From positions 1 through 64,000 of the forward strand of contig JAJRPF010000021.1 of NCBI GenBank assembly GCA_024280885.1: 64,000 bases of DNA. Direction: 5' to 3'. The notes beneath the pieces were generated by a model. That model saw nothing but the letters and a program-made list of their open reading frames with translations, searched no databases and was not told the origin of the DNA. Shown in pieces: positions 5,235 through 43,386 of the stretch. The stretch is from Planctomycetota bacterium. Lineage in GTDB: Bacteria; Planctomycetota; JAJSAM01; JAJVHW01. The position numbers and the translations under genes are program-made. Position 1 is the stretch's first letter. Every line of letters starts with the position of its first letter.

Positions 5235-6167
5235 ATGATCTTCAACCTCCTCCTCGGCGCCGCGGTGACGGCTGGCTTCTTCTGGCCGGCCCCGGGTCTG
5301 GCTGTCGCGCCGTGGAGCCGACAGTTGGTGATCGCCGTCATGTTCCTGATGTCGGTGACGTTGCCCGCGGAGCGCCTGCGGGCCGCTGTCGGAAACGTGC
5401 GCGGTTGGGGCGCCGCGTTCGGCGTCGGCTATTTCGTGCTCCCCCTGCTCTGCGGAGTTCTCGGCCATTGGCTCTTCGCAACGGAGCCGGGGCCGCTCGC
5501 CGGCATGGTCATCCTCGGCGCGCTGCCCTGCACGCTCGCGTCGGCAACGGTCTGGACACGACTCGCCGGAGGCGACGACGCGCTGGCGCTCACATACACG
5601 GTGCTCAGCAACCTCGCGTCGCTCGTCTTCATCCCCGCCTACCTGCTGCTCTTTCTCGGGTCGGCGCTCGACGTTCCCACGACACGATTACTGACCGATC
5701 TCTCCATCGTCGTGCTCGCTCCCGTCGCCGTCGGGCAGGCCGTGCGGCACCTTCTCGGCGCCCGTGTTGACCGCGCCAAACTCGCGATCTCGCGCGTCGC
5801 GCAGGGGCTTGTGCTGACCATCGTGCTGGTCGCCGTCAGCAACATGTCCGGCGAGATTCACGCGCAACCGGGAACGGTCGCGCGACTCGCTCTGCTGGGC
5901 GCCCTCGTCCACACCGCAGCTCTCGCGCTCGGCCACGGAGTTGCGGCACGCCTCGGGTGCTCGCGAGCCGAGCGGATCGCGGTCGGGTTCTCCGGGTCCC
6001 AGAAGACGCTCTTCATCGGCGTGTTCCTCGCGCGCGAGTACTTCCCTACCGCGCCACTGGCACTCCTTCCGATCACGGCCTATCACGTGCTGCAATTGGT
6101 GATCGATACGGCCGTCGCCGGGCATCTCGCCCGTACGACCGACGCCGAAGGGAGCCCCACCGCCTGA
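5235..6167 (+). CDS. SBF-like (bile acid:Na+ symporter superfamily) transporter
   Basis: A 310-residue integral membrane protein with about nine to ten hydrophobic segments. The overall pattern and the signature FSGSQKTLFIG near residue 260 match the SBF-like family (PF13593, YfeH/Rch1 type) rather than classical bile-acid carriers. Substrate is unknown; characterised eukaryotic relatives influence ion homeostasis. It is read divergently from the sigma54 activator. Its stop TGA shares one base with the ATG of the following M48 protease, so the two are very likely translated together. Confidence 0.85.
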   Translation: MIFNLLLGAAVTAGFFWPAPGLAVAPWSRQLVIAVMFLMSVTLPAERLRAAVGNVRGWGAAFGVGYFVLPLLCGVLGHWLFATEPGPLAGMVILGALPCTLASATVWTRLAGGDDALALTYTVLSNLASLVFIPAYLLLFLGSALDVPTTRLLTDLSIVVLAPVAVGQAVRHLLGARVDRAKLAISRVAQGLVLTIVLVAVSNMSGEIHAQPGTVARLALLGALVHTAALALGHGVAARLGCSRAERIAVGFSGSQKTLFIGVFLAREYFPTAPLALLPITAYHVLQLVIDTAVAGHLARTTDAEGSPTA

Positions 6168-7960
6168 TGGTCGCCTTCCTCCAGTACCTCGTCGCCCTGG
6201 TGATCGCCATGAGTCGCGCCTCGGGTCCTGACGCCTCTGCGGGGCGCCCGGATTGGTTCGCGATCATGTTCACGCTGGGCGCGTTCGGGCTCGCGTGGAC
6301 CAGCTTCGGCCTCGTCTACGCGCGGCGCGTCCGCGCGGACTCCGATGCCGCGTTCGGCCGATTTCTGATGGTGCTGGACGTGGGCCGCGTCTCGGCGCTC
6401 GTCTGCTTCTGGTGGATCGCACAGCACGGACTGACGAACGAGTGGCCAGCGTCGCTCGGCATCGCCCACTGGGTGCTCATCCCCCACGCTCTCCGCCTCG
6501 CCCCTTTCGCCCTCCTTGTGGCGCTCCTGCGCATCGGACTGCATCCGGCTGGCGTGCGGTTGGACGCCGAACCGCCGTCGATCGGTCGCACACTGCTCCT
6601 CGAATTCCAGCAGGCGCTGGTTCCCCTGGGACCGCTCCTGCCGCTCCTGATCGTGTGGGATCTCGTGTTCCTCTCGGCGCCGAGCTCCTGGCTGGGCGCG
6701 GTGCGCAGCGTCATTATCGCGTTGCCGGTCGCGCAGGCGCTGCTCTCCCTTGCCATGCTGCTCGGCGCGCTCATGGTCATGCCCTTCCTGCTGCGCATGC
6801 TGTGGAAAGCGCAGCCCATGCCGCCAAGCCAGCTGCGCACGCGCCTCGATGCGTACGCTGCGCGCGTCGGTCTACGCGTGCGCGATATCCTGGTGTGGCC
6901 GACGGGCCCCGGCGTGATGAACGCCGCGGTGGTGGGCCCCTTCCCCCGGTTCCGGTACGTGTTCGTCACAGATGGACTGCTGGAAGCTCTCGGGCCGGAC
7001 GAAGTGGAGGCTGTCTTCGCGCACGAGGCCGGACATGCGCGGCGGGGGCACATCCTGCTCTTCTTCGGCTTCACGACGGTTCTCGTGCTCTCCAGCCTGC
7101 TCCCGGATGCCCCCGTCGGGTCGCCTCTCAGGCTCTGGACGGAGCTCGATCCCCTGCTGCGCTCGGTGCTCATGATGATGGCGTGGATCGGCGTGGTCTT
7201 CGGTTGGATCTCGCGGCGCTTCGAGCAGGAGGCGGACGTGTTCGGGATCGACACGATCCCGTTCGAGGCCGCGAATGCGGGCTCGAACGACACCTCGACG
7301 GGCGCTTCGCGAGCCAGCGCGTCGGAGCACCCGTTCGCACGCGCGCTGGAGCGCATCGCCGACGAGGCGGGGGGCATCCGCGAACTCACGGGTTGGCGGC
7401 ACTTCTCCATCGCCGACCGCATCGAGTTCGTCGGGGCGTATCTCTCCGATGCCGACGTCCGCGCCCGGTATCGGCGCTCGATCTTCCTCGTTCGCGGAAC
7501 GCTCCTCACGATCATCGTCGGGTTCGCGCTCCTGGCGGCGCTCCGCGTGCCGGGCGAGCTGGCCGCGGCTCCGGAGATCTGGCGCGCGGCCCGCGACCCC
7601 TCGTCGCGGTTCTCGTCGCAGATGCTGCAATCACTTCAGAATGCGCTCGTCCCGCTCCCCGGACCCGTCCGGGCGCGGTCGTTCGTGCTGGCTGCGCAGG
7701 CCGCAGAACAGGCCGGGCACGCCGATACAGGCCTCCGGTGGCTCCGGAGCGCGACGACGCTCAGTCCCGCGGACCCGTACGTGCTGGCGACCTATGCGCG
7801 CGCCCTCGCGGCCGCCGATCGCCCGCTCGGATCCGCGCTCGTGTGGCGCGATCTCCTGGCGCTCACGAACGTGCCGCAAGAGCTCCGCGAACAGGCGCTC
7901 ACAGCGCTCCCAGACGAGCCCGCGGGCGGCGTCGCGAAAGACCCCGAGCCCGACGAGTAG
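6167..7960 (+). CDS. M48-family membrane zinc metallopeptidase
   Basis: A 597-residue multi-spanning protein. The catalytic HExxH is HEAGH (His286, Glu287, His290), and the third ligand is the Glu of EQEAD (Glu355), the order expected for M48 (HtpX/Ste24-like) peptidases. Hydrophobic helices precede the active site (about residues 1-210) and follow it. The C-terminal 100 residues look like TPR helices (RSATTLSPADPYVLATYARA). It probably degrades or processes membrane proteins with a cytoplasm-facing active site (family knowledge). The start overlapping the transporter stop is chosen over the longer open frame because the first hydrophobic helix begins there. Confidence 0.9.
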   Translation: MVAFLQYLVALVIAMSRASGPDASAGRPDWFAIMFTLGAFGLAWTSFGLVYARRVRADSDAAFGRFLMVLDVGRVSALVCFWWIAQHGLTNEWPASLGIAHWVLIPHALRLAPFALLVALLRIGLHPAGVRLDAEPPSIGRTLLLEFQQALVPLGPLLPLLIVWDLVFLSAPSSWLGAVRSVIIALPVAQALLSLAMLLGALMVMPFLLRMLWKAQPMPPSQLRTRLDAYAARVGLRVRDILVWPTGPGVMNAAVVGPFPRFRYVFVTDGLLEALGPDEVEAVFAHEAGHARRGHILLFFGFTTVLVLSSLLPDAPVGSPLRLWTELDPLLRSVLMMMAWIGVVFGWISRRFEQEADVFGIDTIPFEAANAGSNDTSTGASRASASEHPFARALERIADEAGGIRELTGWRHFSIADRIEFVGAYLSDADVRARYRRSIFLVRGTLLTIIVGFALLAALRVPGELAAAPEIWRAARDPSSRFSSQMLQSLQNALVPLPGPVRARSFVLAAQAAEQAGHADTGLRWLRSATTLSPADPYVLATYARALAAADRPLGSALVWRDLLALTNVPQELREQALTALPDEPAGGVAKDPEPDE

Positions 7961-12738: not shown

Positions 12739-12770
12739 GACGGCCCGGAGTCGCGTGACTCCGGGCCGTC
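12739..12770. terminator. bidirectional hairpin between convergent genes
   Basis: A perfect 14-bp stem (GACGGCCCGGAGTC paired with GACTCCGGGCCGTC) closed by the tetraloop GCGT, between the zinc-ribbon gene and the selenoprotein gene, which converge. There is no strong T-tract on either side. Confidence 0.75.
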
Positions 12771-12803: not shown

Positions 12804-13760
12804 CTACTCCGCGGACGCGGCCTGAGCGGCCTTGATCTTCGCGTAGAGTTCCGTGACGCGCGCCTCGAGCGGCGTCTTCTTCACGGCGCTCTTGAGTGAC
12901 CCGAGGATCTTCTTCGCCGCGGACATCTCGTCCTCGTCGATCAGATCGTTCGCCTTGTCGAGTTCCTCGCCGGCCTTCTCCATGAGAACGCCGTGGTACT
13001 CGGTGACCATCGCAGCGATCCGATCGCCCTTCTTGTTCAGCTTCTTCGCCCTCTTCTTGAGCAGGGCGAGCGCCTTACCAGCACCCTTCTTGTCGAGCAA
13101 CTCATCGCACTCTGCTTGGGTCTTCTTGACCGCGTCGATGTCCTTGCGCGAGAGACTCGGGCCGTGCTCGGCGTTGAGCTTCGCCTTCATCTCCTCCACG
13201 GCCTCGATCAGCTTGCCCGCGGTCGAAGAGCCCGGCATCGACTTCATCTCGTCGAGGGTGTACGGATCGACGATGGACGTGTACGGGATCTTGCTGGTGT
13301 TGTTGTACTGACCCGCCTTCGTCCGGCGGAAGGCGTACATTTCCTCGATGGTGAGGTTAGGCCATTCGACCAGGTACTTGACCGGCTTGCCGTCGGCGTC
13401 AACCGTGTCGTACGTGTGGGACTTCTCGTCCTTCTTCTCGATGCCCTCGTCGAGGCGACTGAGTGACATCACGTCAACGGCGTTCTCGTATGTGAACTTC
13501 GCGAAATCCTCGTTCTGCAGCACAGACCTGTGCATGCCCCAGCAAGGGCCTCAATAGAAGCCGTGGCTGTAGACGATGATCGGCACGTTGAGCAGCTTGG
13601 CCTCTTCGATCGCCTTCTCCCACGTCTTCGCGTAGGTGACAGAGGGCTTGATCTCGGGCTTCTTGTCCCTCGCAACCGCGACGGCACCGGTCGCTGCCGC
13701 CGCAATCGCGGCCAGCGCCACGATGGCTGTTCTTGCAAACATCGCCGTTCCTTCAAACAT
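12804..13760 (-). CDS. secreted thioredoxin-fold selenoprotein (UGPC motif, UGA read as Sec)
   Basis: Read through one in-frame UGA (13553-13551) this gives a 318-residue protein with selenocysteine at position 70. Residues 1-30 are a signal peptide (MFARTAIVALAAIAAA). Residues 44-95 match the start of thioredoxin-like DUF255/Thioredoxin_7 domains: TWEKAIEEAKLLNVPIIVYS, then HGFY-U-GPC-WGMHRSVL, so Sec replaces the first Cys of the redox CxxC and Cys73 is the resolving residue. Residues 170-318 are a Lys/Glu-rich helical, possibly coiled-coil domain. The ATG at 13760 has GAGGAG seven bases upstream. Read conventionally it would be split into a 69-residue leader fragment and a separate 243-residue ORF, but both are in one frame with only five codons between them. 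The UGA is followed at the correct distance by a SECIS-like hairpin. It probably acts as an extracytoplasmic thiol/selenol oxidoreductase (inference). sel genes are not in the window. Confidence 0.88.
13517..13537 (-). promoter_or_regulatory. bacterial SECIS element
   Basis: RNA hairpin 14-34 bases after the UGA: lower stem GCA/UGC, a bulged U at 13534, upper stem GCAC/GUGC and the hexaloop AGGUCU (13529-13524). The E. coli fdhF SelB-binding hairpin, as known, has a three-pair lower stem, a bulged U, a short upper stem and the same AGGUCU loop. It would recruit SelB with Sec-tRNA. A second small stem (GCCC/GGGC) lies directly behind the UGA. Confidence 0.85.
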
Positions 13761-14074
13761 TCGAAGTCTCCTCAACGCTGCGCACCCCGGATCTCTTCCG
13801 AAGCCGCGCGCCCAACAACTATTTGTAGCAATACGAGTCCGGTCTCGACACGCATCGAACCATCCGGGTCCCCACCCGGAAGCCCGGCAGTCTACACCGT
13901 TCCTGTCCCTACTAACGCACGCCCCTCGACCAGGGTTCCCTCACAGATTCCCGCCCAGACCGGGTCGGCCTTGGGGCCTTATAGCCTCAACTCGGGCCGT
14001 CGAACCGGGAGAGGGCCACCCTTCTGACGGGAAAAAGGTCGCGGGTGAGTCTGTCGGGGCGCAGAAGAGAAGGC
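13761..14074. other. divergent intergenic region
   Basis: 314 bp between the selenoprotein gene (minus) and the nitrilase gene (plus). It must hold both promoters. The most AT-rich tract is 13819-13842, and TTATAG at 13979-13984 could be a plus-strand -10. No repeat or ORF with protein-like content is seen. Confidence 0.4.
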
Positions 14075-14932
14075 GTGAAAGCCGCCCTCGCTCAGACCGC
14101 CCCGCAGCTCGCGAACGTCGCGGCCAACTTCGCCAATCACGCTGCAATCGTCGATCGCGCGGTCGCCGCGGGCGCGGAGTTGGTCGTCTTCCCGGAGCTC
14201 TCGCTGACCGGCTATCTGCTCATGGAGGCGACCCCCGAAGTCGCGATCACGCTCGACTCACCGCGGATGGACGCGTTGCGCACGCTCTCGAAACGGGCCG
14301 CGCTCGCCGTCGGCCTCGTCGAGGAGGCCCCCGGCGGCCGCTACTTCAACTCGGCAGCGTTCCTCGACGGCGGTGAGTTGCTCCACGTCCACCGCAAGGT
14401 GTACCTGCCGTCGCACGGACTCTTCGACGAGACACGCCACTTCGCGATAGGCGACCGCATTCGCGCGTTCGACACGCGCTTTGGCCGGGTCGGCATGCTC
14501 ATCTGCCGTGACTTCTGGCATCTCGGCCCGGCATACCTGCTGGCGTGCCAGGACGTCGACGTCATGTGCGTCCTCTCCGCAAGCCCGGGGCGCGGTGCCG
14601 AATCGGACTCGGGGCGTTTCGAGAGCGGAGCGTCGGTCTCGCTTCTCGGCGACGTCTACGGTCGGTCGTTCGGTTGCCACGTCCTGCATGCCAATCGCGG
14701 CGGCGTCGAGGAAGGCGTCACATTTGTCGGTGGGTCGGAGGCGTATGCACCGGACGGCTCACTCCTCGCGCGGGGCAAGGACGAGGAGTGCGATCTCGTC
14801 GTCGTCGAGATCGACCCAGCGGCGCGGCGCGCGGCGCGCTTGCGAATGCCCTTCCTGAAGGAAGAGCGCCCCCACCTCATCCTGCGGGAGCTGCAACGTG
14901 TCCTCTCCGAGCGTTCCGCACCTCGATACTGA
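14075..14932 (+). CDS. nitrilase-superfamily amidohydrolase, likely glutaminase partner of NadE
   Basis: A 285-residue carbon-nitrogen hydrolase with the full triad: Glu41 (FPELSLTGY), Lys107 (HRKVYLP) and Cys143 (LICRDFW). The GTG at 14075 is preferred because family members start with (M)KxALAQ and a purine-rich AGAAGAGAAGG precedes it; the open frame runs ten codons further up. Its last 35 bases overlap the start of nadE. In glutamine-dependent NAD synthetases a nitrilase domain supplies ammonia to the synthetase domain within one chain. Here the two are separate, overlapping genes, so this product may be the ammonia-producing subunit (inference). Confidence 0.88.
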   Translation: MKAALAQTAPQLANVAANFANHAAIVDRAVAAGAELVVFPELSLTGYLLMEATPEVAITLDSPRMDALRTLSKRAALAVGLVEEAPGGRYFNSAAFLDGGELLHVHRKVYLPSHGLFDETRHFAIGDRIRAFDTRFGRVGMLICRDFWHLGPAYLLACQDVDVMCVLSASPGRGAESDSGRFESGASVSLLGDVYGRSFGCHVLHANRGGVEEGVTFVGGSEAYAPDGSLLARGKDEECDLVVVEIDPAARRAARLRMPFLKEERPHLILRELQRVLSERSAPRY

Positions 14933-35308: not shown

Positions 35309-35351
35309 GATGCTGGCGCGCCGCGTGCTCTGCACGCGGCGTGACAGCATC
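35309..35351 (-). terminator. terminator hairpin of the alpha-2-macroglobulin gene
   Basis: Two coaxial stems overlapping the stop codon: GATGCTG/CAGCATC (7 bp) outside and GCCGCGTGC/GCACGCGGC (9 bp) inside, with a 3-base loop. No T-tract. Confidence 0.7.
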
Positions 35352-38300
35352 ACCGTCGCCAGAGCGCCACGTGGCCGCCCTTCTCGGCTACGACGGAGAA
35401 CTTGCCGCCCACGCCGCCCGCCTCGAACACGCCGCGCGCATCCGTGAAGCCCTGCGCCTTGATCGATGCCCCATCGCCGATCTTCACGTAGACCTCGGGA
35501 CGCGGAGCGCCGGTCGCGCGGTCGGTGGCGTACACGCGCACCGAGCCGTTCACTTCCTGCACCTCGATCTTGAGGTCGGAGACGAGCACGACGCTCGACG
35601 CTTCCAATCCGCCGGATCGCGCCGTCACCAGGTACACACCCTTCTCCCGGACGGGGAGCGGGACGGTCTCGTCGCTCCAGCGATGATCCTCGGCGCCGCG
35701 CCGCGCGACGCCCCACTCCTTGACGGGGCGGATGCCGGAGAGGTCGATGCGATTGACCTGCGAGAGGTCGGGTCGCAGCGCGTAGAGGATCATGAAGTCC
35801 ACCGCGAAGACCTGCACGCGTACTTCGGGGACGTTGCGACGCCGCAGGTGCAACTCCGGCGCTTCGCCGACGCCGACACTCTCGACCTCGCGTAGCTCGA
35901 GCCCCTTGCGGGTCAGGAATGCGTGTGCGTCGCGCGCATCGGGGAAGAGATGCGCAACCTGCCCGTAGAGATCGGCCGCGCGGGCCAACTCACCACGGGC
36001 ATGCGCAATCCGAGCGGTCAAGTGGATGGCCTTCGCCCGAAGCGGCGAAACCACCAGCTGCTTCGGGTTCTGGTCGGACGGATACTCGCGCTCAAGCAGC
36101 GGGCGCGCTGCAGCGAGCGAGCGGTCGAACGCGCCGGCCTGGAATTCGCCCTCGGCAACGAGGTACGTCACGTCATCGAGGAAACGACTCTTCTCGTGGC
36201 GACGCAGGAAGCGCGCGCCCTCGTCGATGGCCTCTTCGGCGAGCCCCATGCGGAGCAGGAGTTGCACCGTGAGATGCCCTGCCTCGTGCGCCCACGCCGA
36301 CGTCGCGTAGTGCGCTTCGAAGGCACGCAACTGTGTGACCGCCTCCGTCAACATCAGCGGTCCGCTCCCGGCTGACGCGCCGTTCCCGGAGCCAACGATG
36401 TGCATATCAGCCGTACGACGCGCCAGGGCCCACTCCTCGGCCTGCACCCAGCTCGCATCGGGAAGAGACCGCAGCGCATCCATGAGCAGCGTCCGCGTAC
36501 GCCATGGGTTCCCGATCTGTGCGAACGCGTCGATGGCCGCGCGATCGGTTGCGAAGTACTCGCGCACGAGATCGCGCAACACGGTCAGAGCGCGCTCGTG
36601 TTCGCCAAGTCCACGGTACGCGACGGCGAGGCGACGGCGATCAGCTCGGGCCTTCGGCGCCCGACGTGGGTTGCGATCGACGATCTCCTCGAAGGCCTTC
36701 ACGATCAGCTCGGAGTCATCGAGTTCGATGCCCGCACGGAAGAGCAGGACCCATGCCTCCTCGGCGATCTTGGGGCGCAACTCGAAGTCGCGCAGCAAGC
36801 CGCGAACAGCGTCCCGCGCCGCGCTCCAATCACCGCGGTCGGTGTCGCGATGCGCGAGTCCCCAGATCTCGTCGGGCGTGATCTCTTCGGACGACGGCGC
36901 GCGGCCAGCGGCTCCCGGTTCGCTCGTGACCTCCAACGCGTGTTCGCGCGACCAACCATGCAGCTCGGGTTCGTACATGGCCCGCGCCTGCGCCGGGAGC
37001 GCTGTGTAGGAACCCGGATGGACGGCCTGTAAGACATAGCTGAGCGTGACCGTTCCGCTCAGTCGGGAGAGGAAGAATACCTGCCGGTCGTCGCGCCGCT
37101 CCTCGCGGTCGAACGTGCCCACCGTGGAGTCCGAGACGACCTCGAACCCCGCCGGAAGCGCATCCTCGACGATCACGCGCTCGACAGCGACGCGCGACGA
37201 CACGCGCAATGTGACACGCACCTTGTCGCCGGTCCCCGCGCGGGAGAGCGGACGACCGATCCACCCGGCCGGGCGCTTCGCGCGAGCGACGATCGAGTAC
37301 CCTGGCGCCACGCGCCGCAGCACATCTTCACCGGGCAGCGCGGGCCGCACCCACTCGGTGTAGTTGCGCTCGATCGCGATCAACGTGCCGCCGCGCTCGA
37401 TACGCCCCTCGGCCGGAGCCGCTTCGACTGCGGAAAGTAGCACGCTCCAATGGACAGCGCCTGAGCCCGTACGCCGCAGTACGACACGGTTCTTCCCGGC
37501 ATTCAGTTTGTCCGCCGGCACGGTGAACGAGATCGGCGCATCCACGGCGCGATCGGCCCCGAACGTCACGTCGCCGACAGCTTCGCCGTTGACCTCGACA
37601 CGGACGACGCCATTCGCGACGAAGACGGCGGCGCGGCCGGCGTGCGCCGCGAGAGCCTCGATCGCAACAGCGGTATCACGCGTCGAACGCCAGGCCGGAC
37701 CGCGCCGCGATGCGCGCAACCACGCTGCCGCGGGGTCCACCAGCGGGCTGGACGGATCGGACGCGAGGAGAGCCAGGAGCGCGTACGCCGTGGGCTCGGC
37801 GTTCCGGAAGCGAACGGGCCGCCCGATGAAACGCTTGCGCGCGTCATCCTGCGGGCTGCCCCAGTGCGCCTGACCGTCTGACTGCTGGACCAGCGTCGCG
37901 AGTTGACGCACAAGTTCGAGCGCATTCGTTGGGCGCCCGGTGTGCTGCATCGAGAGAGCGAGCAGCGCCAGCGCGCGGGGCGAGAGCTTGGAACGCTCGC
38001 GATAGAGCGCGTTCAGATCGGCGAGATCGGCCTGCTTCGCAAACGAGAGCGCGTAGAGCAGGAACGCTCGCTGCTCCGACGAGGCACCACGTACGAGACG
38101 CTTCGCGGCGGCGATCGCCGCGTCGCGATTGCGCGTCGAGACGCGGAAGCGTGCGCGCTCGGCCCGCACGAGTCCCAGCACGGCGTAGGCTGTCATCTCG
38201 GGGTCGCCGCCGCTCGCACGCTGCGCGCTGCCGTGTGACCGCACACCGAACCACCCGAACGAACCGTCGTCGTTCTGCAATGCGTAGAGCGCCGCAAGGC

Positions 38301-41300
38301 CACGCCGCACAGAGTCGTCGAGCGCGTCGCGCTTGCGGAATACCGGGGAGTTCAAGCTCTCCAGAGCCATGCGCGCGGCGAGTGCCGGGAGGAAGCGATT
38401 GACGGTCTGCTCCACGCAGCCGTAGGGGTAGCTCGCCGTGTACGCCAACGACTCGAGCAACGCGAGGTCGATCGAGGGAGACATCGTGACGACCAGCGAT
38501 GCAGTCCCGTCGATGATCTCGGCCGGGAGTTCGAGTTCGGCGAACGCCTCGTCGATCAGCGTGCCGCTCGCGCCATCGAGGCGTCGCAGACCGTGCGGCA
38601 GGACCGGCAATCCGGTTACGGCCGCGTCGCCGGATTTCGTCGTCGCCACCGACGCGCGAACACGCGCGGCGCCATGACCCGCTGCCAAGAGCGCCGCCTC
38701 GAAGCTGGTCACCGAGCCGGGTGCGATCTCGACGTCGGTCTTCGTCTCACCGGTCACACGATCACCCTCAGCAGCAACGGAGACTCGCGCCTGAACGGCT
38801 TCGGCCAACGACGAGTGAACGATACCCGTGGCGGTCGTCGCGTCGCCGGTCACGAGGAAACGCGGGGCATCCACGCGGATGAGCAGCGGCTTCGTGACGC
38901 GGAAGGATGAGCGCGTCTCGCCGACGAGCGGACCGGCCGAGGCGCCACGTGCGGTGATGCGCCACTCGGTCAGATTGTCGGGAAGCGTGAACGTCAGATG
39001 CGCCTTGCCGTCAGCGCCCGTCTCGACGCGTGGATCGGTGACCGCCGTATCTTCGAAGCGCCGGCGCAGTTCGGGGACCACGAAGGGGACTGCGTCCTGT
39101 GCGAGCATGACGGCGCCCTGCATGTCCGCAGTGGAGGCCCACGATTTCAGGCGCGCGAACTGGTTCTCCGCGCGGGCGCGGAAGTCACCTGACTTCGCGT
39201 CCTTGAACAACGCCTTGTCAGCGGGCGCGTCGTCGGTGTCTTGGTTCTCGCTCTTCTTCCCGCCGCCGCCACGCGCGCGCAAACTGCGCCGCCCGCCCTT
39301 CCGTCCGCCGAATGCGCCTCCGGCCCCGCCACCGATCCCGATCGTGCCGTTTGTGCTCGGGCCTTCGAATGCGCTGTCCATCGCGGGCTTCCGCGAAGGA
39401 GAGCGTGCTTCGACGGGGCGAGTCTCACGTGACTTCGACTTCACCGCTAGACGGTCCTGGCGCCGCAATTGATCGAGCAGTCCGCGCGCCTCGTAGTTCC
39501 CGGGACCGATCTCGAGCGCCTTCTCGAGTTCTTCGATGGCGCCCTGCTGCTTCCCGAGTTTCAACAACGCGCGTCCGAGCCGCACGTGCTCCTGCATCTT
39601 CTCGAATTGGTCCTTCCCGAGACGCCGCATGCGCTCGAAGAGGAGGTCGCGGTTGGTCGGCCGCGTGACGGACGGGAGAGTGAGTCCGGCCGACGACGCT
39701 GTGCGAACGGCATGCGAACGGCGCTGGTCGTAGAAGAACGGCTTCACCTGCGGCGTGGCGTCCGGCGCGAGTGCGTAGATCGCAGCGTCCACAACATCCA
39801 CGCCGACGAGCGCCCGCACCGGATTGCCGCTCTGATCTGTCGTCGTGACCGAGAGCGTGACCGCGTCGCCTGGGCCGTACTCGTCGCGATCGGGTGTCAC
39901 CGAGACGTCCAGGTACTGAAACACGGCAACCTCGTCGCCCGCCTCGTGCAACTCGCCGTCCTTCGCGACGGCCATGCGCAGGAAGACGTTGGGCGAGTGA
40001 GCCGCGCTCAGTGGCAACTCCACGATCGACGAACGCTCGGTGGCCATGAAGACGCGATGCTCCAGAATGCGATCGCCCTCGTAGGTCAGGAGCACGGGCA
40101 CGGGCGCGGAGGGCACGTTCACGAGCACCTTCGCCACGTCGCCCTCCCGATAGAACTCGCGGTCGGCGACGAGCTTCGCGTGCTTCGTCAGGTCCTCGGA
40201 GTCGCCACTGACCGTGATCTCCGCGGCGCCGGTGACGGTGTTCCCGCGCGCGTCCTTCGCGACGAAACGTGCGAGATACGTACCGGGCCGCGGTGCCGTC
40301 AGATCGACCGTAGCGCGACCGAGCGCGTCCGTCTTGGCCGCGACCGTCTGCACGTCTTCTTCCGCCCAATGCTGATCCACGCGAACGCGGCGCACGAGGA
40401 TCGCGCGCCCCTCCACGACCACCGGAACGTGCAACGCATTGACGACCGTCGTCTTCAGCGTGAACGCCTCGCCCGGTCGGACGACCTTCTTCTCGGTCTT
40501 GCAGAGAACGTGAAAGCCGCGCGTCGTGACCGGGACGGCGGCAGAAGTGCGCACCCACCGTCGGTTCGGATCCTGCGCCTCGACGACCAGCGTGTACGTG
40601 CGATCCTGCTCGACGGCATCCGTCGCGAACGTGATCGTCGCGCGCCCCTCGCGATCAGTCACCGTCTCGCCCTGCGCGTGCAGAACGGCGCCGAGGGCGG
40701 CGCGGCGGCGCGCCTCTTCCTCGCGGACCGGATCGCGGAAGAACCACGCGAAGTCCTGGTGCACGGTCTTGTCGAAGACGTACGTTCCGCGATACACGGA
40801 CCAACGCACGGGCGCCGCCGACGCGACGCCACCGACCGCGTAGCGCAGCGAGACGGAGGCCTCGACCGGATCGCCCGCCAGGTATGCAGCGCTTCCCGGG
40901 ACGACCTTCATCAGGACGTCCGGCTTCTTGAATGCCTTGACCTCGAATGACTGCGTGAATGTCCGACCGTCGAGCTCCGCCGTCATGGTGTACGTGCCGA
41001 GCGCGGGCTCCGACGCCAGTTCCAGAATGCCGGACGCCACGCCGTACGCGTCGCAGGCGAACTTCTCGTCGAGGAGCATCGCACCGCGCGGATCGACGAC
41101 GCGCACCGGAACGCGGAGCGAATCCTCGGCGACGTAGCGCCCCTCGCTCACGCGGCGCACCGTGGCACGCAGGTTCACCGTCTGCTGTCCGCGGTAGAGC
41201 GGTCGATCGGTGGTCAGGAAGACCTTCGTCGTATACCCGAACGCTGTCGCGGCACCGGCCGTGGCGTCCGCGAACGCAAAATGACCGTCGTGCGCTCCGG

Positions 41301-43386
41301 TGCCCGTCAAGAGCGCGCGCAATCGCGGCATCGGTTTGCCGTCCTCGCGCCAGACGCCATCCGCTGCGGTCACGCCGCGATGATCGCCGTCCAGCACGTG
41401 TACGCGTACACCGCCCACCGGCTTGCCGAGGCGCTCGTCGTAGACGAAGACAAGCCCGCCCGCAGGCGATGACTTCACGATCGCCGTCAGATCGCTGATG
41501 ACGACCATGAAGCGCGCTGTCAGCTCGTCGTCCGCTGCCGTCACGATGTACGCGCCGGGTGCGGAGAAGGGCAGCGCGCACGCGCGCTCGAGCAGGCGAT
41601 ACTTCGCATACTCACCGGCCTCCCAATCCCACGCGTGGTCGGGCTTCACGACATCCACATCGACGGTCTCGACGCCCGCAAGACCACCGCGCCGCGCGAC
41701 GTACGCCGCGGCGTCCAGGCGGTAGGCTTTCATCCGCAATCGCTCGACGTTGCGCAGCGTGAACTGCACTGCCGGGCTCTCATCCGTACGGAAGGCGCGC
41801 TTCACGACGGCGCGCAACGTGCGCGCTTTCATCTCGCCCATGATGCGCCGCGCCTCGGCGGCCGACGGAGTGCCCGGCCACTTGGTCGCCGTTTCCTCGT
41901 ACGCGGCAAGTGCCGCGTCGAGGTCGGCCAGCGGTCCTTCGTGCGCGCCCGCAACGGCCAGCATGGCGACGGGGGCATCCGACGACTGCGGGTACTTCGT
42001 CGCGCAGAGTCGCCATGCCTCGACGGCCTCCGCATGCCGCTCGGCACGCTTCGCCAGATCTCCGAGGAGTCTCTGCGCCGCGGGAGCATGCGCGTCGACC
42101 GGGAACGCCGCGAGGAACGCCGCGAGTGCAGTGCCGGCCGCGTCGTCCTGCTCGCGCTCGAATGCGCGCGCGCCCTTCAGATACGACGCCTCGGCGACGC
42201 GCCTCTGGGCCTGCCCCCAGAGCGGATGATCCGGCCAGCGATCGAGCAACACGCGCCACTCGCGTACCGCACCGTCGAAGTCGTCCAGTGCGAGGCGTGA
42301 CGCGGCGGCGCGATCCTGCGCGGAAGGCGCTTGGTCGTGATCGCCGAACTTCGCGACGAACTCCAGGAACGCGGCGGACGCCTCGTCCGGACGCCCGGCG
42401 GTGGTCCACGTGTTGCCGATACCCAACAACACCGAGGCTGCGTCGTCGTGCGCCGGGTAGAGCCGCAAGAATTCGCGCCACGCGGCGATCGCGCGACGGG
42501 CGGGCTCGAGCCCGCTGCCCGTCCACCAACTCTCGCCGGTGCGGATCAACGCGAGCGGCGCGAACTCGGAGTCACCGAAGCGCTCTCGGAGGCCTGCGAA
42601 CGCGCGACGGGCTCCGGGACGATCACCCGCGATGACGCGCGCACGGCCCAGAGTATAGAGCGCATCATCGGCCACATCGCCCACACCGACGGCGTCCGCC
42701 GCAGCGAGCGGCTCCAGTTCGCGGATCGCCGCCCCCGCGTCCCCCGACTCAAGAGAAGAGAGACCGATCCGGAACGCCACCAGTGCCCGCTCGGCCTCCG
42801 GGACATGCACCGACCGGGCCATCTCATAGAAACGACGCGCGCTCGCCCAGTCGCGCACTCGCTTCATCCGGCCATAGGTATCCGGGCGCTCCTCACCCTC
42901 GAAAGCGCCGCCGGCGATCTCGCGGTAGAGCGCAGCCGTCACGGCCGCATGGTCATCCGAAGCCGCCTCGTCCACGCGCGCCGCGTAGACGTCGGCCGCA
43001 CGCTGCCAGTCCCGCTTCCGCGACGACGCCTCGGCCACAAGGTAGAGCGCCTTCACATGCCAAGCGGAAGCCGCGCGCTCGACGATGGGATCGACCGCCG
43101 CGAGCGCCGCGTCGTTCTGACCGAGCGCGAGGCGCGTCCGCGCCACCAACAGTCGCGCTTCGTCCGCGGCATCGAGTCCCGGCTTGGCCGCCTGGAAGGC
43201 GCGCGCAGCGGTCTCGACGGCCGCCAGATCACGATCGGCGGCAGCGCTGCGGACGGCCTCGAGGCGCCGCCCGAGTTCGGCAGCTTCCTGGGCGTGGACG
43301 ACGAGAGTCAGGGCCACCCCCACCGTGACGACGGCGGCGAGCAGGATTCGGGCGAGAACGGTTCGGGCAAGAAGGGTGCGACGCAT
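35350..43386 (-). CDS. giant alpha-2-macroglobulin-like protein with TPR modules
   Basis: 2678 residues, exported (signal peptide to about LVVHAQ). Residues about 35-530 are TPR-like repeats. MG-type beta domains run from about 540. A TPR insert (KQQGAIEELEKALEIGPGNY, about 1260-1310) and a Gly/Arg-rich linker (about 1345-1380) precede the A2M domain (LTEWRITARG). The thioester domain has YPYGCVEQ, with Cys1657 and Gln1660 forming the bond. After the receptor-binding-like region (to about 2145) comes a second TPR block and another MG-like domain (VPEVRVQVFAVDF, about 2510-2678) resembling the one near 545. Bacterial A2Ms trap proteases; most are about 1500-1900 residues with no such C-terminal addition. 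It is not beside a pbpC gene. Confidence 0.9.
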   Translation of the reverse strand: MRRTLLARTVLARILLAAVVTVGVALTLVVHAQEAAELGRRLEAVRSAAADRDLAAVETAARAFQAAKPGLDAADEARLLVARTRLALGQNDAALAAVDPIVERAASAWHVKALYLVAEASSRKRDWQRAADVYAARVDEAASDDHAAVTAALYREIAGGAFEGEERPDTYGRMKRVRDWASARRFYEMARSVHVPEAERALVAFRIGLSSLESGDAGAAIRELEPLAAADAVGVGDVADDALYTLGRARVIAGDRPGARRAFAGLRERFGDSEFAPLALIRTGESWWTGSGLEPARRAIAAWREFLRLYPAHDDAASVLLGIGNTWTTAGRPDEASAAFLEFVAKFGDHDQAPSAQDRAAASRLALDDFDGAVREWRVLLDRWPDHPLWGQAQRRVAEASYLKGARAFEREQDDAAGTALAAFLAAFPVDAHAPAAQRLLGDLAKRAERHAEAVEAWRLCATKYPQSSDAPVAMLAVAGAHEGPLADLDAALAAYEETATKWPGTPSAAEARRIMGEMKARTLRAVVKRAFRTDESPAVQFTLRNVERLRMKAYRLDAAAYVARRGGLAGVETVDVDVVKPDHAWDWEAGEYAKYRLLERACALPFSAPGAYIVTAADDELTARFMVVISDLTAIVKSSPAGGLVFVYDERLGKPVGGVRVHVLDGDHRGVTAADGVWREDGKPMPRLRALLTGTGAHDGHFAFADATAGAATAFGYTTKVFLTTDRPLYRGQQTVNLRATVRRVSEGRYVAEDSLRVPVRVVDPRGAMLLDEKFACDAYGVASGILELASEPALGTYTMTAELDGRTFTQSFEVKAFKKPDVLMKVVPGSAAYLAGDPVEASVSLRYAVGGVASAAPVRWSVYRGTYVFDKTVHQDFAWFFRDPVREEEARRRAALGAVLHAQGETVTDREGRATITFATDAVEQDRTYTLVVEAQDPNRRWVRTSAAVPVTTRGFHVLCKTEKKVVRPGEAFTLKTTVVNALHVPVVVEGRAILVRRVRVDQHWAEEDVQTVAAKTDALGRATVDLTAPRPGTYLARFVAKDARGNTVTGAAEITVSGDSEDLTKHAKLVADREFYREGDVAKVLVNVPSAPVPVLLTYEGDRILEHRVFMATERSSIVELPLSAAHSPNVFLRMAVAKDGELHEAGDEVAVFQYLDVSVTPDRDEYGPGDAVTLSVTTTDQSGNPVRALVGVDVVDAAIYALAPDATPQVKPFFYDQRRSHAVRTASSAGLTLPSVTRPTNRDLLFERMRRLGKDQFEKMQEHVRLGRALLKLGKQQGAIEELEKALEIGPGNYEARGLLDQLRRQDRLAVKSKSRETRPVEARSPSRKPAMDSAFEGPSTNGTIGIGGGAGGAFGGRKGGRRSLRARGGGGKKSENQDTDDAPADKALFKDAKSGDFRARAENQFARLKSWASTADMQGAVMLAQDAVPFVVPELRRRFEDTAVTDPRVETGADGKAHLTFTLPDNLTEWRITARGASAGPLVGETRSSFRVTKPLLIRVDAPRFLVTGDATTATGIVHSSLAEAVQARVSVAAEGDRVTGETKTDVEIAPGSVTSFEAALLAAGHGAARVRASVATTKSGDAAVTGLPVLPHGLRRLDGASGTLIDEAFAELELPAEIIDGTASLVVTMSPSIDLALLESLAYTASYPYGCVEQTVNRFLPALAARMALESLNSPVFRKRDALDDSVRRGLAALYALQNDDGSFGWFGVRSHGSAQRASGGDPEMTAYAVLGLVRAERARFRVSTRNRDAAIAAAKRLVRGASSEQRAFLLYALSFAKQADLADLNALYRERSKLSPRALALLALSMQHTGRPTNALELVRQLATLVQQSDGQAHWGSPQDDARKRFIGRPVRFRNAEPTAYALLALLASDPSSPLVDPAAAWLRASRRGPAWRSTRDTAVAIEALAAHAGRAAVFVANGVVRVEVNGEAVGDVTFGADRAVDAPISFTVPADKLNAGKNRVVLRRTGSGAVHWSVLLSAVEAAPAEGRIERGGTLIAIERNYTEWVRPALPGEDVLRRVAPGYSIVARAKRPAGWIGRPLSRAGTGDKVRVTLRVSSRVAVERVIVEDALPAGFEVVSDSTVGTFDREERRDDRQVFFLSRLSGTVTLSYVLQAVHPGSYTALPAQARAMYEPELHGWSREHALEVTSEPGAAGRAPSSEEITPDEIWGLAHRDTDRGDWSAARDAVRGLLRDFELRPKIAEEAWVLLFRAGIELDDSELIVKAFEEIVDRNPRRAPKARADRRRLAVAYRGLGEHERALTVLRDLVREYFATDRAAIDAFAQIGNPWRTRTLLMDALRSLPDASWVQAEEWALARRTADMHIVGSGNGASAGSGPLMLTEAVTQLRAFEAHYATSAWAHEAGHLTVQLLLRMGLAEEAIDEGARFLRRHEKSRFLDDVTYLVAEGEFQAGAFDRSLAAARPLLEREYPSDQNPKQLVVSPLRAKAIHLTARIAHARGELARAADLYGQVAHLFPDARDAHAFLTRKGLELREVESVGVGEAPELHLRRRNVPEVRVQVFAVDFMILYALRPDLSQVNRIDLSGIRPVKEWGVARRGAEDHRWSDETVPLPVREKGVYLVTARSGGLEASSVVLVSDLKIEVQEVNGSVRVYATDRATGAPRPEVYVKIGDGASIKAQGFTDARGVFEAGGVGGKFSVVAEKGGHVALWRR

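What the first reader, a model, noticed from the sequence alone, without database searches (positions are those of the whole stretch)
12804..13760. Secreted thioredoxin-like selenoprotein with a UGPC motif
Two ORFs that would normally be called separate hypothetical proteins are in one frame, split only by UGA. The UGA falls exactly on the first Cys of a thioredoxin CxxC motif (HGFY-U-GPC-WGMH), flanked on both sides by coherent thioredoxin-fold sequence. A signal peptide and a long helical C-terminal domain make this an exported selenol oxidoreductase. I know of no described selenoprotein family with this architecture, although Cys-containing homologues of the DUF255/Thioredoxin_7 type are widespread.
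Basis: partly seen in the sequence, partly recalled or inferred. Interest (0 to 1): 0.95.

Follow-up and report, generated by a model that had tools for sequence, protein, structure and literature searches.

The report
Unannotated planctomycete thioredoxin-like selenoprotein family
What gene finders cut into two hypothetical proteins is one gene whose internal UGA 'stop' most likely encodes selenocysteine, giving a predicted exported thioredoxin-like enzyme of a planctomycete family whose UGA-bearing members stand in databases as pieces cut off at that codon.

Summary
Window 13760..12804 (minus strand) is one 318-codon frame with a single TGA (13553-13551) on the first position of a thioredoxin CxxC motif. 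Of 66 database relatives, 40 span that position and all 40 have Cys; 25 start after it, as a missed Sec codon predicts. In 392 genomes drawn from the phylum, 27 of 34 matches carry exactly one TGA and none a TAA or TAG. A sister subfamily (HKDx-UxxC) is mostly TGA-bearing (37 of its 39 strongest matches). A hairpin 22 nt after the UGA covaries through third codon bases across 53 sites. The genome holds selA, selB, selD (itself with an in-frame TGA) and tRNA-Sec(tca). The model (pLDDT 92) shows a DsbH/DsbD-gamma-like thioredoxin domain plus a helical domain. Most likely function: periplasmic selenol-disulfide reductase; the genome's only DsbD_TM protein also shows UxxC, and no DsbB or VKOR was found, which suggests a selenium-based reducing relay. 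The window protein reaches no NCBIfam cut-off, and no row of a 2026 table of 119 selenoprotein families shows this architecture. Selenium incorporation itself is not shown.

The parts
12804..13760 (-). Selenoprotein gene, 318 sense codons plus TAG (U70 if the start is ATG 13760, U64 if ATG 13742)
   Evidence: alignment with 26 full-length Cys homologues
13551..13553 (-). In-frame TGA, predicted Sec codon, first position of UGPC
   Evidence: Cys in 40 of 40 database relatives that span it
13520..13533 (-). SECIS-like hairpin GCACA-GGUC-UGUGC (+21 to +34, loop 22 nt after the UGA)
   Evidence: register A, covariation in relatives
13671..13742 (-). Signal-peptide-like N-terminus (hydrophobic stretch, about residues 7-30)
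   Evidence: read; model helix 7-23; no signal-peptide predictor run
13164..13655 (-). Thioredoxin-fold domain, residues 36-199, with UGPC 70-73 and invariant Pro159
12807..13172 (-). Helical C-terminal domain (five helices, TPR-like arrangement)
13767..13773 (-). Shine-Dalgarno-like GAGGAGA before ATG 13760
   Evidence: read
12739..12770 (-). Perfect 14-bp inverted repeat after the stop, possible terminator (no T run)
   Evidence: read; not listed by the terminator scan

Best explanation
Window 13760..12804 (minus strand) is one gene whose in-frame TGA occupies the first cysteine position of a thioredoxin CxxC motif and is most likely read as selenocysteine, giving a predicted exported selenol-disulfide reductase. 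Inferred mechanism: SelB with Sec-tRNA-Sec recognises the hairpin 22 nt after the UGA and inserts Sec; the protein is exported through its signal-like N-terminus; the Sec70 selenolate attacks a substrate disulfide, Cys73 resolves the mixed selenylsulfide, and the oxidised U-C pair is reduced again, most likely by the genome's only DsbD, whose gamma domain itself shows UxxC. The helical C-terminal domain would bind substrate or partner proteins. Shown: the gene structure, the UGA/Cys equivalence across the family, the covarying hairpin, the selA, selB, selC and selD genes. Inferred: Sec insertion in vivo, export, direction of electron flow, the DsbD link, the role of the C-terminal domain.
For: One TGA at the Cys position in 27 of 34 matches in 392 genomes, none with TAA or TAG; Cys in 40 of 40 database relatives that span it, 25 of the other 26 start after it. 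Sister subfamily: 37 of the 39 matches at E 1e-40 or better have one TGA, 45 of 46 database relatives start after it. Hairpin: 27 of 29 TGA sites against 2.2 expected; pairs 22-33 and 25-30 standard in 37 and 34 of 40 against 20.2 and 18.2 shuffled. Machinery; SelD itself with TGA. selA in 28 of 28 family-holding genomes against 241 of 392. Fold. Only DsbD_TM protein with UxxC; no DsbB or VKOR match.
Against: No selenium was measured. The two hairpin registers were chosen after seeing the sequences, and shuffles ignore relatedness. The published bSECIS limits do not discriminate here (52 of 53 TGA sites, 4 of 5 Cys sites, 189 of 300 random positions). The window's own 5-bp hairpin is not better than synonymous shuffles on energy alone, and the 71-nt fold has z -0.42. 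Codon changes against four relatives are not mainly synonymous. No gene neighbour links it to DsbD. The genome is 91.5% complete, so absence of DsbB or VKOR is soft.
Confidence: 0.8

Rival explanations
1. The Sec assignment is right, but the protein works as an oxidase or isomerase (DsbA/DsbC-like), a peroxidase-type enzyme, or a metal(loid)-binding redox protein rather than as a disulfide reductase.
For: xx of UxxC varies widely in the family (GP, PS, NP, PP, PG, GG, SP, GA), so the redox potential may vary; no substrate is known.
Against: Nearest folds are DsbH, DsbD-gamma and thioredoxins; the window motif is the GPC of thioredoxin (recalled); no DsbB or VKOR match in the genome, a DsbD is present.
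Confidence: 0.15
2. Pseudogene or sequencing error: a Cys or Trp codon mutated or was misread as TGA.
For: Gene finders and databases treat the gene as truncated.
Against: TGA recurs at the same position at 53 sites and both sides of it are conserved in the family; none of the 34 matches has TAA or TAG.
Confidence: 0.01
3. Two separate proteins: translation ends at the UGA and restarts at ATG 13535, giving a stand-alone C-terminal part.
For: Annotated relatives start there: 24 of 25 truncated entries begin at the Met of WGM-H.
Against: The restart would cut away the first half of the thioredoxin fold and the motif; Cys homologues are continuous; in the sister subfamily the annotated starts differ; no Shine-Dalgarno spacing is seen before ATG 13535 (read).
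Confidence: 0.02
4. UGA is read as another amino acid (Cys or Trp) by a changed code or a suppressor tRNA.
For: None beyond the open frame itself.
Against: TGA still ends many family ORFs; the tRNA with anticodon tca that was found is tRNA-SeC, although tRNAs were scanned only in two loci and the window; Sec machinery is complete; the hairpin covaries.
Confidence: 0.02

Closest known systems
Chlamydial DsbH (2ju5) and DsbH-domain protein of Brucella (7tkv)
   Different: 16% identity; window protein 16.7 bits against the DsbH cut-off of 190; Sec instead of Cys; extra helical C-terminal domain
DsbD gamma domain (2fwe, 1vrs), including its Sec form (Trx-like 2, cd02953, PMC2398784, passage seen)
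   Different: Here a separate exported protein without the DsbD membrane domain and with a helical C-terminal domain
Trx7/PDZ selenoprotein, NF041199 (PMC13188914, Table 1)
   Same: Selenoprotein with a Thioredoxin_7-like domain; 4 of 8 sister-subfamily members match the model (best E 2.4e-5)
   Different: Listed motif is CxxU, here UxxC; the window protein does not match at E 1
YbbN (3qou; E. coli, called CnoX, recalled)
   Same: Thioredoxin domain followed by TPR-like helices; Foldseek E 4.5e-4 over 279 columns
   Different: TMq 0.27, rmsd 11.1; cytoplasmic and without Sec (recalled)

Membership tests
Bacterial selenoprotein (UGA-encoded Sec) | In-frame UGA inside a conserved reading frame, aligned with Cys in homologues | tested here: met
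   40 of 40 spanning database relatives have Cys; 27 of 34 genome matches have one TGA
Bacterial selenoprotein (UGA-encoded Sec) | SECIS stem-loop shortly after the UGA | tested here: met
   Conserved, covarying hairpin with loop 22 nt (register A) or 26 nt (register B) after the UGA; the generic bSECIS limits of PMC13188914 alone do not discriminate
Bacterial selenoprotein (UGA-encoded Sec) | selA, selB, selC, selD in the genome | tested here: met
Bacterial selenoprotein (UGA-encoded Sec) | Selenium in the protein | not testable with these tools
   needs 75Se labelling or mass spectrometry
Thioredoxin_7 (PF13899) | Gathering score 27 bits | tested here: not met
   Window protein 21 bits; the sister-subfamily protein L056:1465-2382 reaches 33.7 bits
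Trx7/PDZ selenoprotein NF041199 | Match of the window protein to the model; Sec at the second position (CxxU) | tested here: not met
   Not among the 3 NCBIfam matches of P0001 at E 1; Sec is at the first position
DsbH (NF043050) | Cut-off 190 bits | tested here: not met
   16.7 bits
Thioredoxin fold | Redox motif at the start of the helix after the first central strand, and the conserved Pro loop | tested here: met
   Strand 61-67, motif 70-73, helix 71-81; invariant Pro159 before strand 160-164; structural matches
TPR domain (C-terminal part) | Match to TPR profiles or TPR structures | tested here: inconclusive

The most novel reading that the evidence does not exclude
Planctomycetota run an exported disulfide-reducing relay built on selenium at consecutive steps: a Sec-DsbD hands electrons to this Sec-thioredoxin/helical-domain family (two subfamilies, HGFY-UxxC and HKDx-UxxC, at times in tandem copies), an envelope selenoprotein system that annotation has missed because the genes are cut at the UGA.
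Probability: 0.4. Interest if true: 0.8.

Novelty: new variant of a known kind. Interest (0 to 1): 0.64.

Why it matters
It adds a selenoprotein family with an architecture absent from the latest list seen (exported thioredoxin plus helical domain), with a sister subfamily whose database entries are nearly all cut off at the Sec codon. It suggests that envelope redox chemistry in planctomycetes may depend on selenium. It gives a clean SECIS case: third bases of two codons follow first bases of upstream codons, so the RNA constraint can be read from protein-neutral changes. The tree needs 7 Sec/Cys switches, at least 5 of them forced by well-supported branches, which makes the family usable for asking why Sec is kept or lost.

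Tried and rejected
Rejected: pseudogene or error (TGA recurs at 53 sites); changed code (TGA still ends family ORFs); two-gene model. The genome-contig scan with P0001 alone gave 21 pattern matches and no relative; the scan with A1 gave 24 loci, of which L082 (Porphyromonas endodontalis, E 3e-5) was not used.

Weak or without result: fold of the stretch around the UGA (z -0.42); hairpin energies against synonymous shuffles whose codon table included the hairpin itself (mean z -0.73 for 24 TGA sites, +0.22 for 5 Cys sites; the window's own z is +0.69); the published bSECIS limits; Rfam scan of 2 kb (4 matches, none at gathering score); promoter and terminator scan (no promoter, one terminator-like site on the other strand); gene neighbourhood of the window and 23 loci (apart from the gene itself and overlapping frames, clusters are shared by at most 4 loci). 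In four pairwise comparisons nonsynonymous codon changes exceed synonymous ones in 7 of 8 stretches, so that test gives no support; the family alignment does.

Residue 82: Gln in 21 of 21 DNA-proven Sec proteins, Cys in 27 of 45 Cys proteins. I considered a compensating third cysteine, but on the tree it rests on 2-3 independent pairs (median p 0.25), and the Gln codon lies in or beside the hairpin, so I do not claim it. Residue 162 shows no such trend on the tree.

Rows dropped: P0067 (unrelated N-terminus, perhaps chimeric) from the count of truncated relatives and from the tree, though it was in the tree; P0002 and P0012 (the window's gene and G006's) from both trees; L_G042 and P0055 as too short; sister-subfamily rows are not in the trees; three chance pattern hits (L040 3432, L078 12432, L014 2283) from the 56, leaving 53; L053, cut by a contig end, is in the 29 and not in the 53.

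Absence from print: of PMC13188914 I read section 7, parts 1 and 2 of 3, with all of Table 1, and passages elsewhere; of PMC9312934, PMC12013277, PMC1794560, PMC1088965, PMC2398784 and PMC4807772 I saw passages only. Paper searches: (listings). Only papers under open licences are in the library.

Full report
What is there. On the minus strand 13760..12804 a single frame of 318 codons runs from ATG to TAG with one internal TGA at 13553-13551. The mechanical ORF list cuts it into 13756-13469 and 13535-12804. The TGA stands in HGFY-U-GPCWGMH. A Shine-Dalgarno-like GAGGAGA precedes ATG 13760 and AAGGAA precedes ATG 13742 (read).

The position is a Cys position. A search of 5.8 billion proteins gave 66 relatives (only the 7998 candidates sharing most words were scored). 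Forty span the position and all forty have Cys. Of the other 26, 25 start downstream of it (24 at the Met of WGM-H, P0012 a few residues later), and one, P0067, has an unrelated N-terminus. The names given by sources are 'hypothetical protein' or labels such as cytochrome b562; none says selenoprotein.

The TGA recurs. In the class, 9 genomes were searched: four have a full-length TGA form (G000, G006, G004, G007), and G007 also has a Cys paralogue. In 392 genomes drawn from the phylum, 28 have a match at E 1e-20: 34 matches, 27 with exactly one TGA, 7 with none (one of these, in G042, is a fragment that does not reach the motif), none with TAA or TAG. In the loci read the TGA is always the first position of UxxC, while xx varies (GP, PS, NP, PP, PG, GG, SP, GA). 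A selA match was found in 241 of the same 392 genomes and in all 28 that hold the family (hypergeometric 6e-7; the genomes are related, so this is a guide only). The Cys-form genomes hold selA too. Of 24 named loci, 19 bear planctomycete names, 4 only 'bacterium', all 23 from uncultured or metagenome-assembled genomes; the 24th, Porphyromonas, is a weak match and was set aside.

A sister subfamily. Weak matches led to proteins with HKDx-UxxC (also HAEH, HQDG), again with TGA, at times in tandem (L056, L057). Its profile A2 aligns with A1 over 282 columns (hhalign probability 99.9, E 4.7e-35). A phylum search with A2 found 67 of 392 genomes at E 1e-15, which includes the first subfamily and looser relatives without a stop; of the 39 matches at E 1e-40 or better, 37 have exactly one TGA and two none. 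Of 46 database relatives of A2, 45 begin after the UGA position; the other, P0113, is distant and aligns with Ala. One Cys form (L055) was read.

The hairpin. Among the 29 TGA sites first collected (26 of the first subfamily, 3 of the sister), 27 have 5 or more contiguous pairs in one of two registers: A (stem 21-25 with 30-34, loop mostly GGUC at +26) or B (loop CGUGAU-like at +30). Synonymous shuffling gives 2.2 of 29; of 5 Cys genes, 1 has it against 0.5 expected. The registers were defined after looking at the sequences. Over 53 TGA sites, 40 are not register B; in these, pair 22-33 is standard in 37 (shuffled 20.2, sd 2.5) as C-G, G-C and U-A, and pair 25-30 in 34 (18.2, sd 2.9) as C-G, G-C and A-U. 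Positions 30 and 33 are third codon bases, so the codons of residues 79 and 80 follow the first bases of the codons of residues 77 and 78. These shuffles ignore relatedness. A GGUC loop is also found in the E. coli fdhF SECIS (recalled). The generic bSECIS limits quoted in PMC13188914 are met by 52 of 53 sites, but also by 4 of 5 Cys sites and 189 of 300 random positions, so they carry no weight.

The machinery. The genome (6.3 Mb, 74 contigs, 91.5% complete) has selA (504 bits), selB (297 bits, 331 with its C-terminal piece), selD (389 bits) with its own TGA in GGG-U-AAK, and tRNA-Sec (72 bits, anticodon tca). PMC13188914 lists UxxK as the Sec motif of SelD.

How it most likely works. The GPC motif, the DsbH/DsbD-gamma-like fold, the signal-like N-terminus and the lack of a DsbB or VKOR match (the controls rang in 6 and 3 of 14 genomes) point to a periplasmic reductase. 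Its likely electron donor is the genome's only DsbD_TM protein, whose gamma domain also shows a TGA in FTGVG-U-PNC. In the phylum 88 of 392 genomes have a DsbD relative at E 1e-60: 60 with one TGA, 26 with none, one with two TGA, one with TGA and TAA; the place of the TGA was read only in the window's genome. Sec forms of a thiol:disulfide interchange protein with UxxC are known (PMC2398784, PMC13188914). The link between the two proteins is inference; gene neighbourhood does not support it.

Evolution. On a tree of 88 rows, built without residues 1-83, the Sec/Cys label needs 7 changes, at least 5 forced by well-supported branches; without P0067 it is again 7. Truncated entries were counted as Sec by inference. 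Direction is not inferred.

Novelty. The window protein reaches no NCBIfam cut-off; for other members the tables give no cut-offs, the best selenoprotein models being TsoB (E 2.4e-4 in A1, 3.4e-5 in A2) and Trx7/PDZ (2.4e-5 in A2). None of the 119 rows of Table 1 in PMC13188914 (2026) shows this architecture. The S9 table of PMC4807772 could not be read. I file it as a new selenoprotein family, a variant of the known UxxC thioredoxin-like kind.

Noticed in passing
L113 about 2520-2522 (G000:C43:19492-21510, +): The genome's only DsbD_TM protein also has an in-frame TGA at the gamma-domain motif FTGVG-U-PNC, followed by an 8-bp hairpin (CCUGGAGA-CAUUGA-UCUCCAGG); 60 of 88 DsbD relatives in 392 phylum genomes have exactly one TGA.
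   Followed up: partly
L056 1666 and 2651, L057 1663 and 2627, L026 378, L027 1249 (TGA, coding-strand positions): Sister subfamily with HKDx-UxxC, mostly TGA-bearing, partly in tandem copies; database entries start after the TGA.
   Followed up: partly
L018 (G000:C27:30162-31088, -): SelD of the window's genome is itself a likely selenoprotein: TGA in GGG-U-AAK.
   Followed up: partly
L047, L051, L052: Tandem pairs of the first subfamily, both copies with TGA.
   Followed up: no
14045-14932 (+) and 5957-7960 (+): Neighbouring genes: a carbon-nitrogen hydrolase read divergently from the selenoprotein gene, and an M48 peptidase; 8 other nearby frames had no Pfam match.
   Followed up: no
35350-43386 (-): A 2678-residue open reading frame, not examined.
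   Followed up: no
L025 (G005:C126:127904-128221): The C-terminal helical domain matches a 248-codon frame without a thioredoxin domain in a same-family genome.
   Followed up: no
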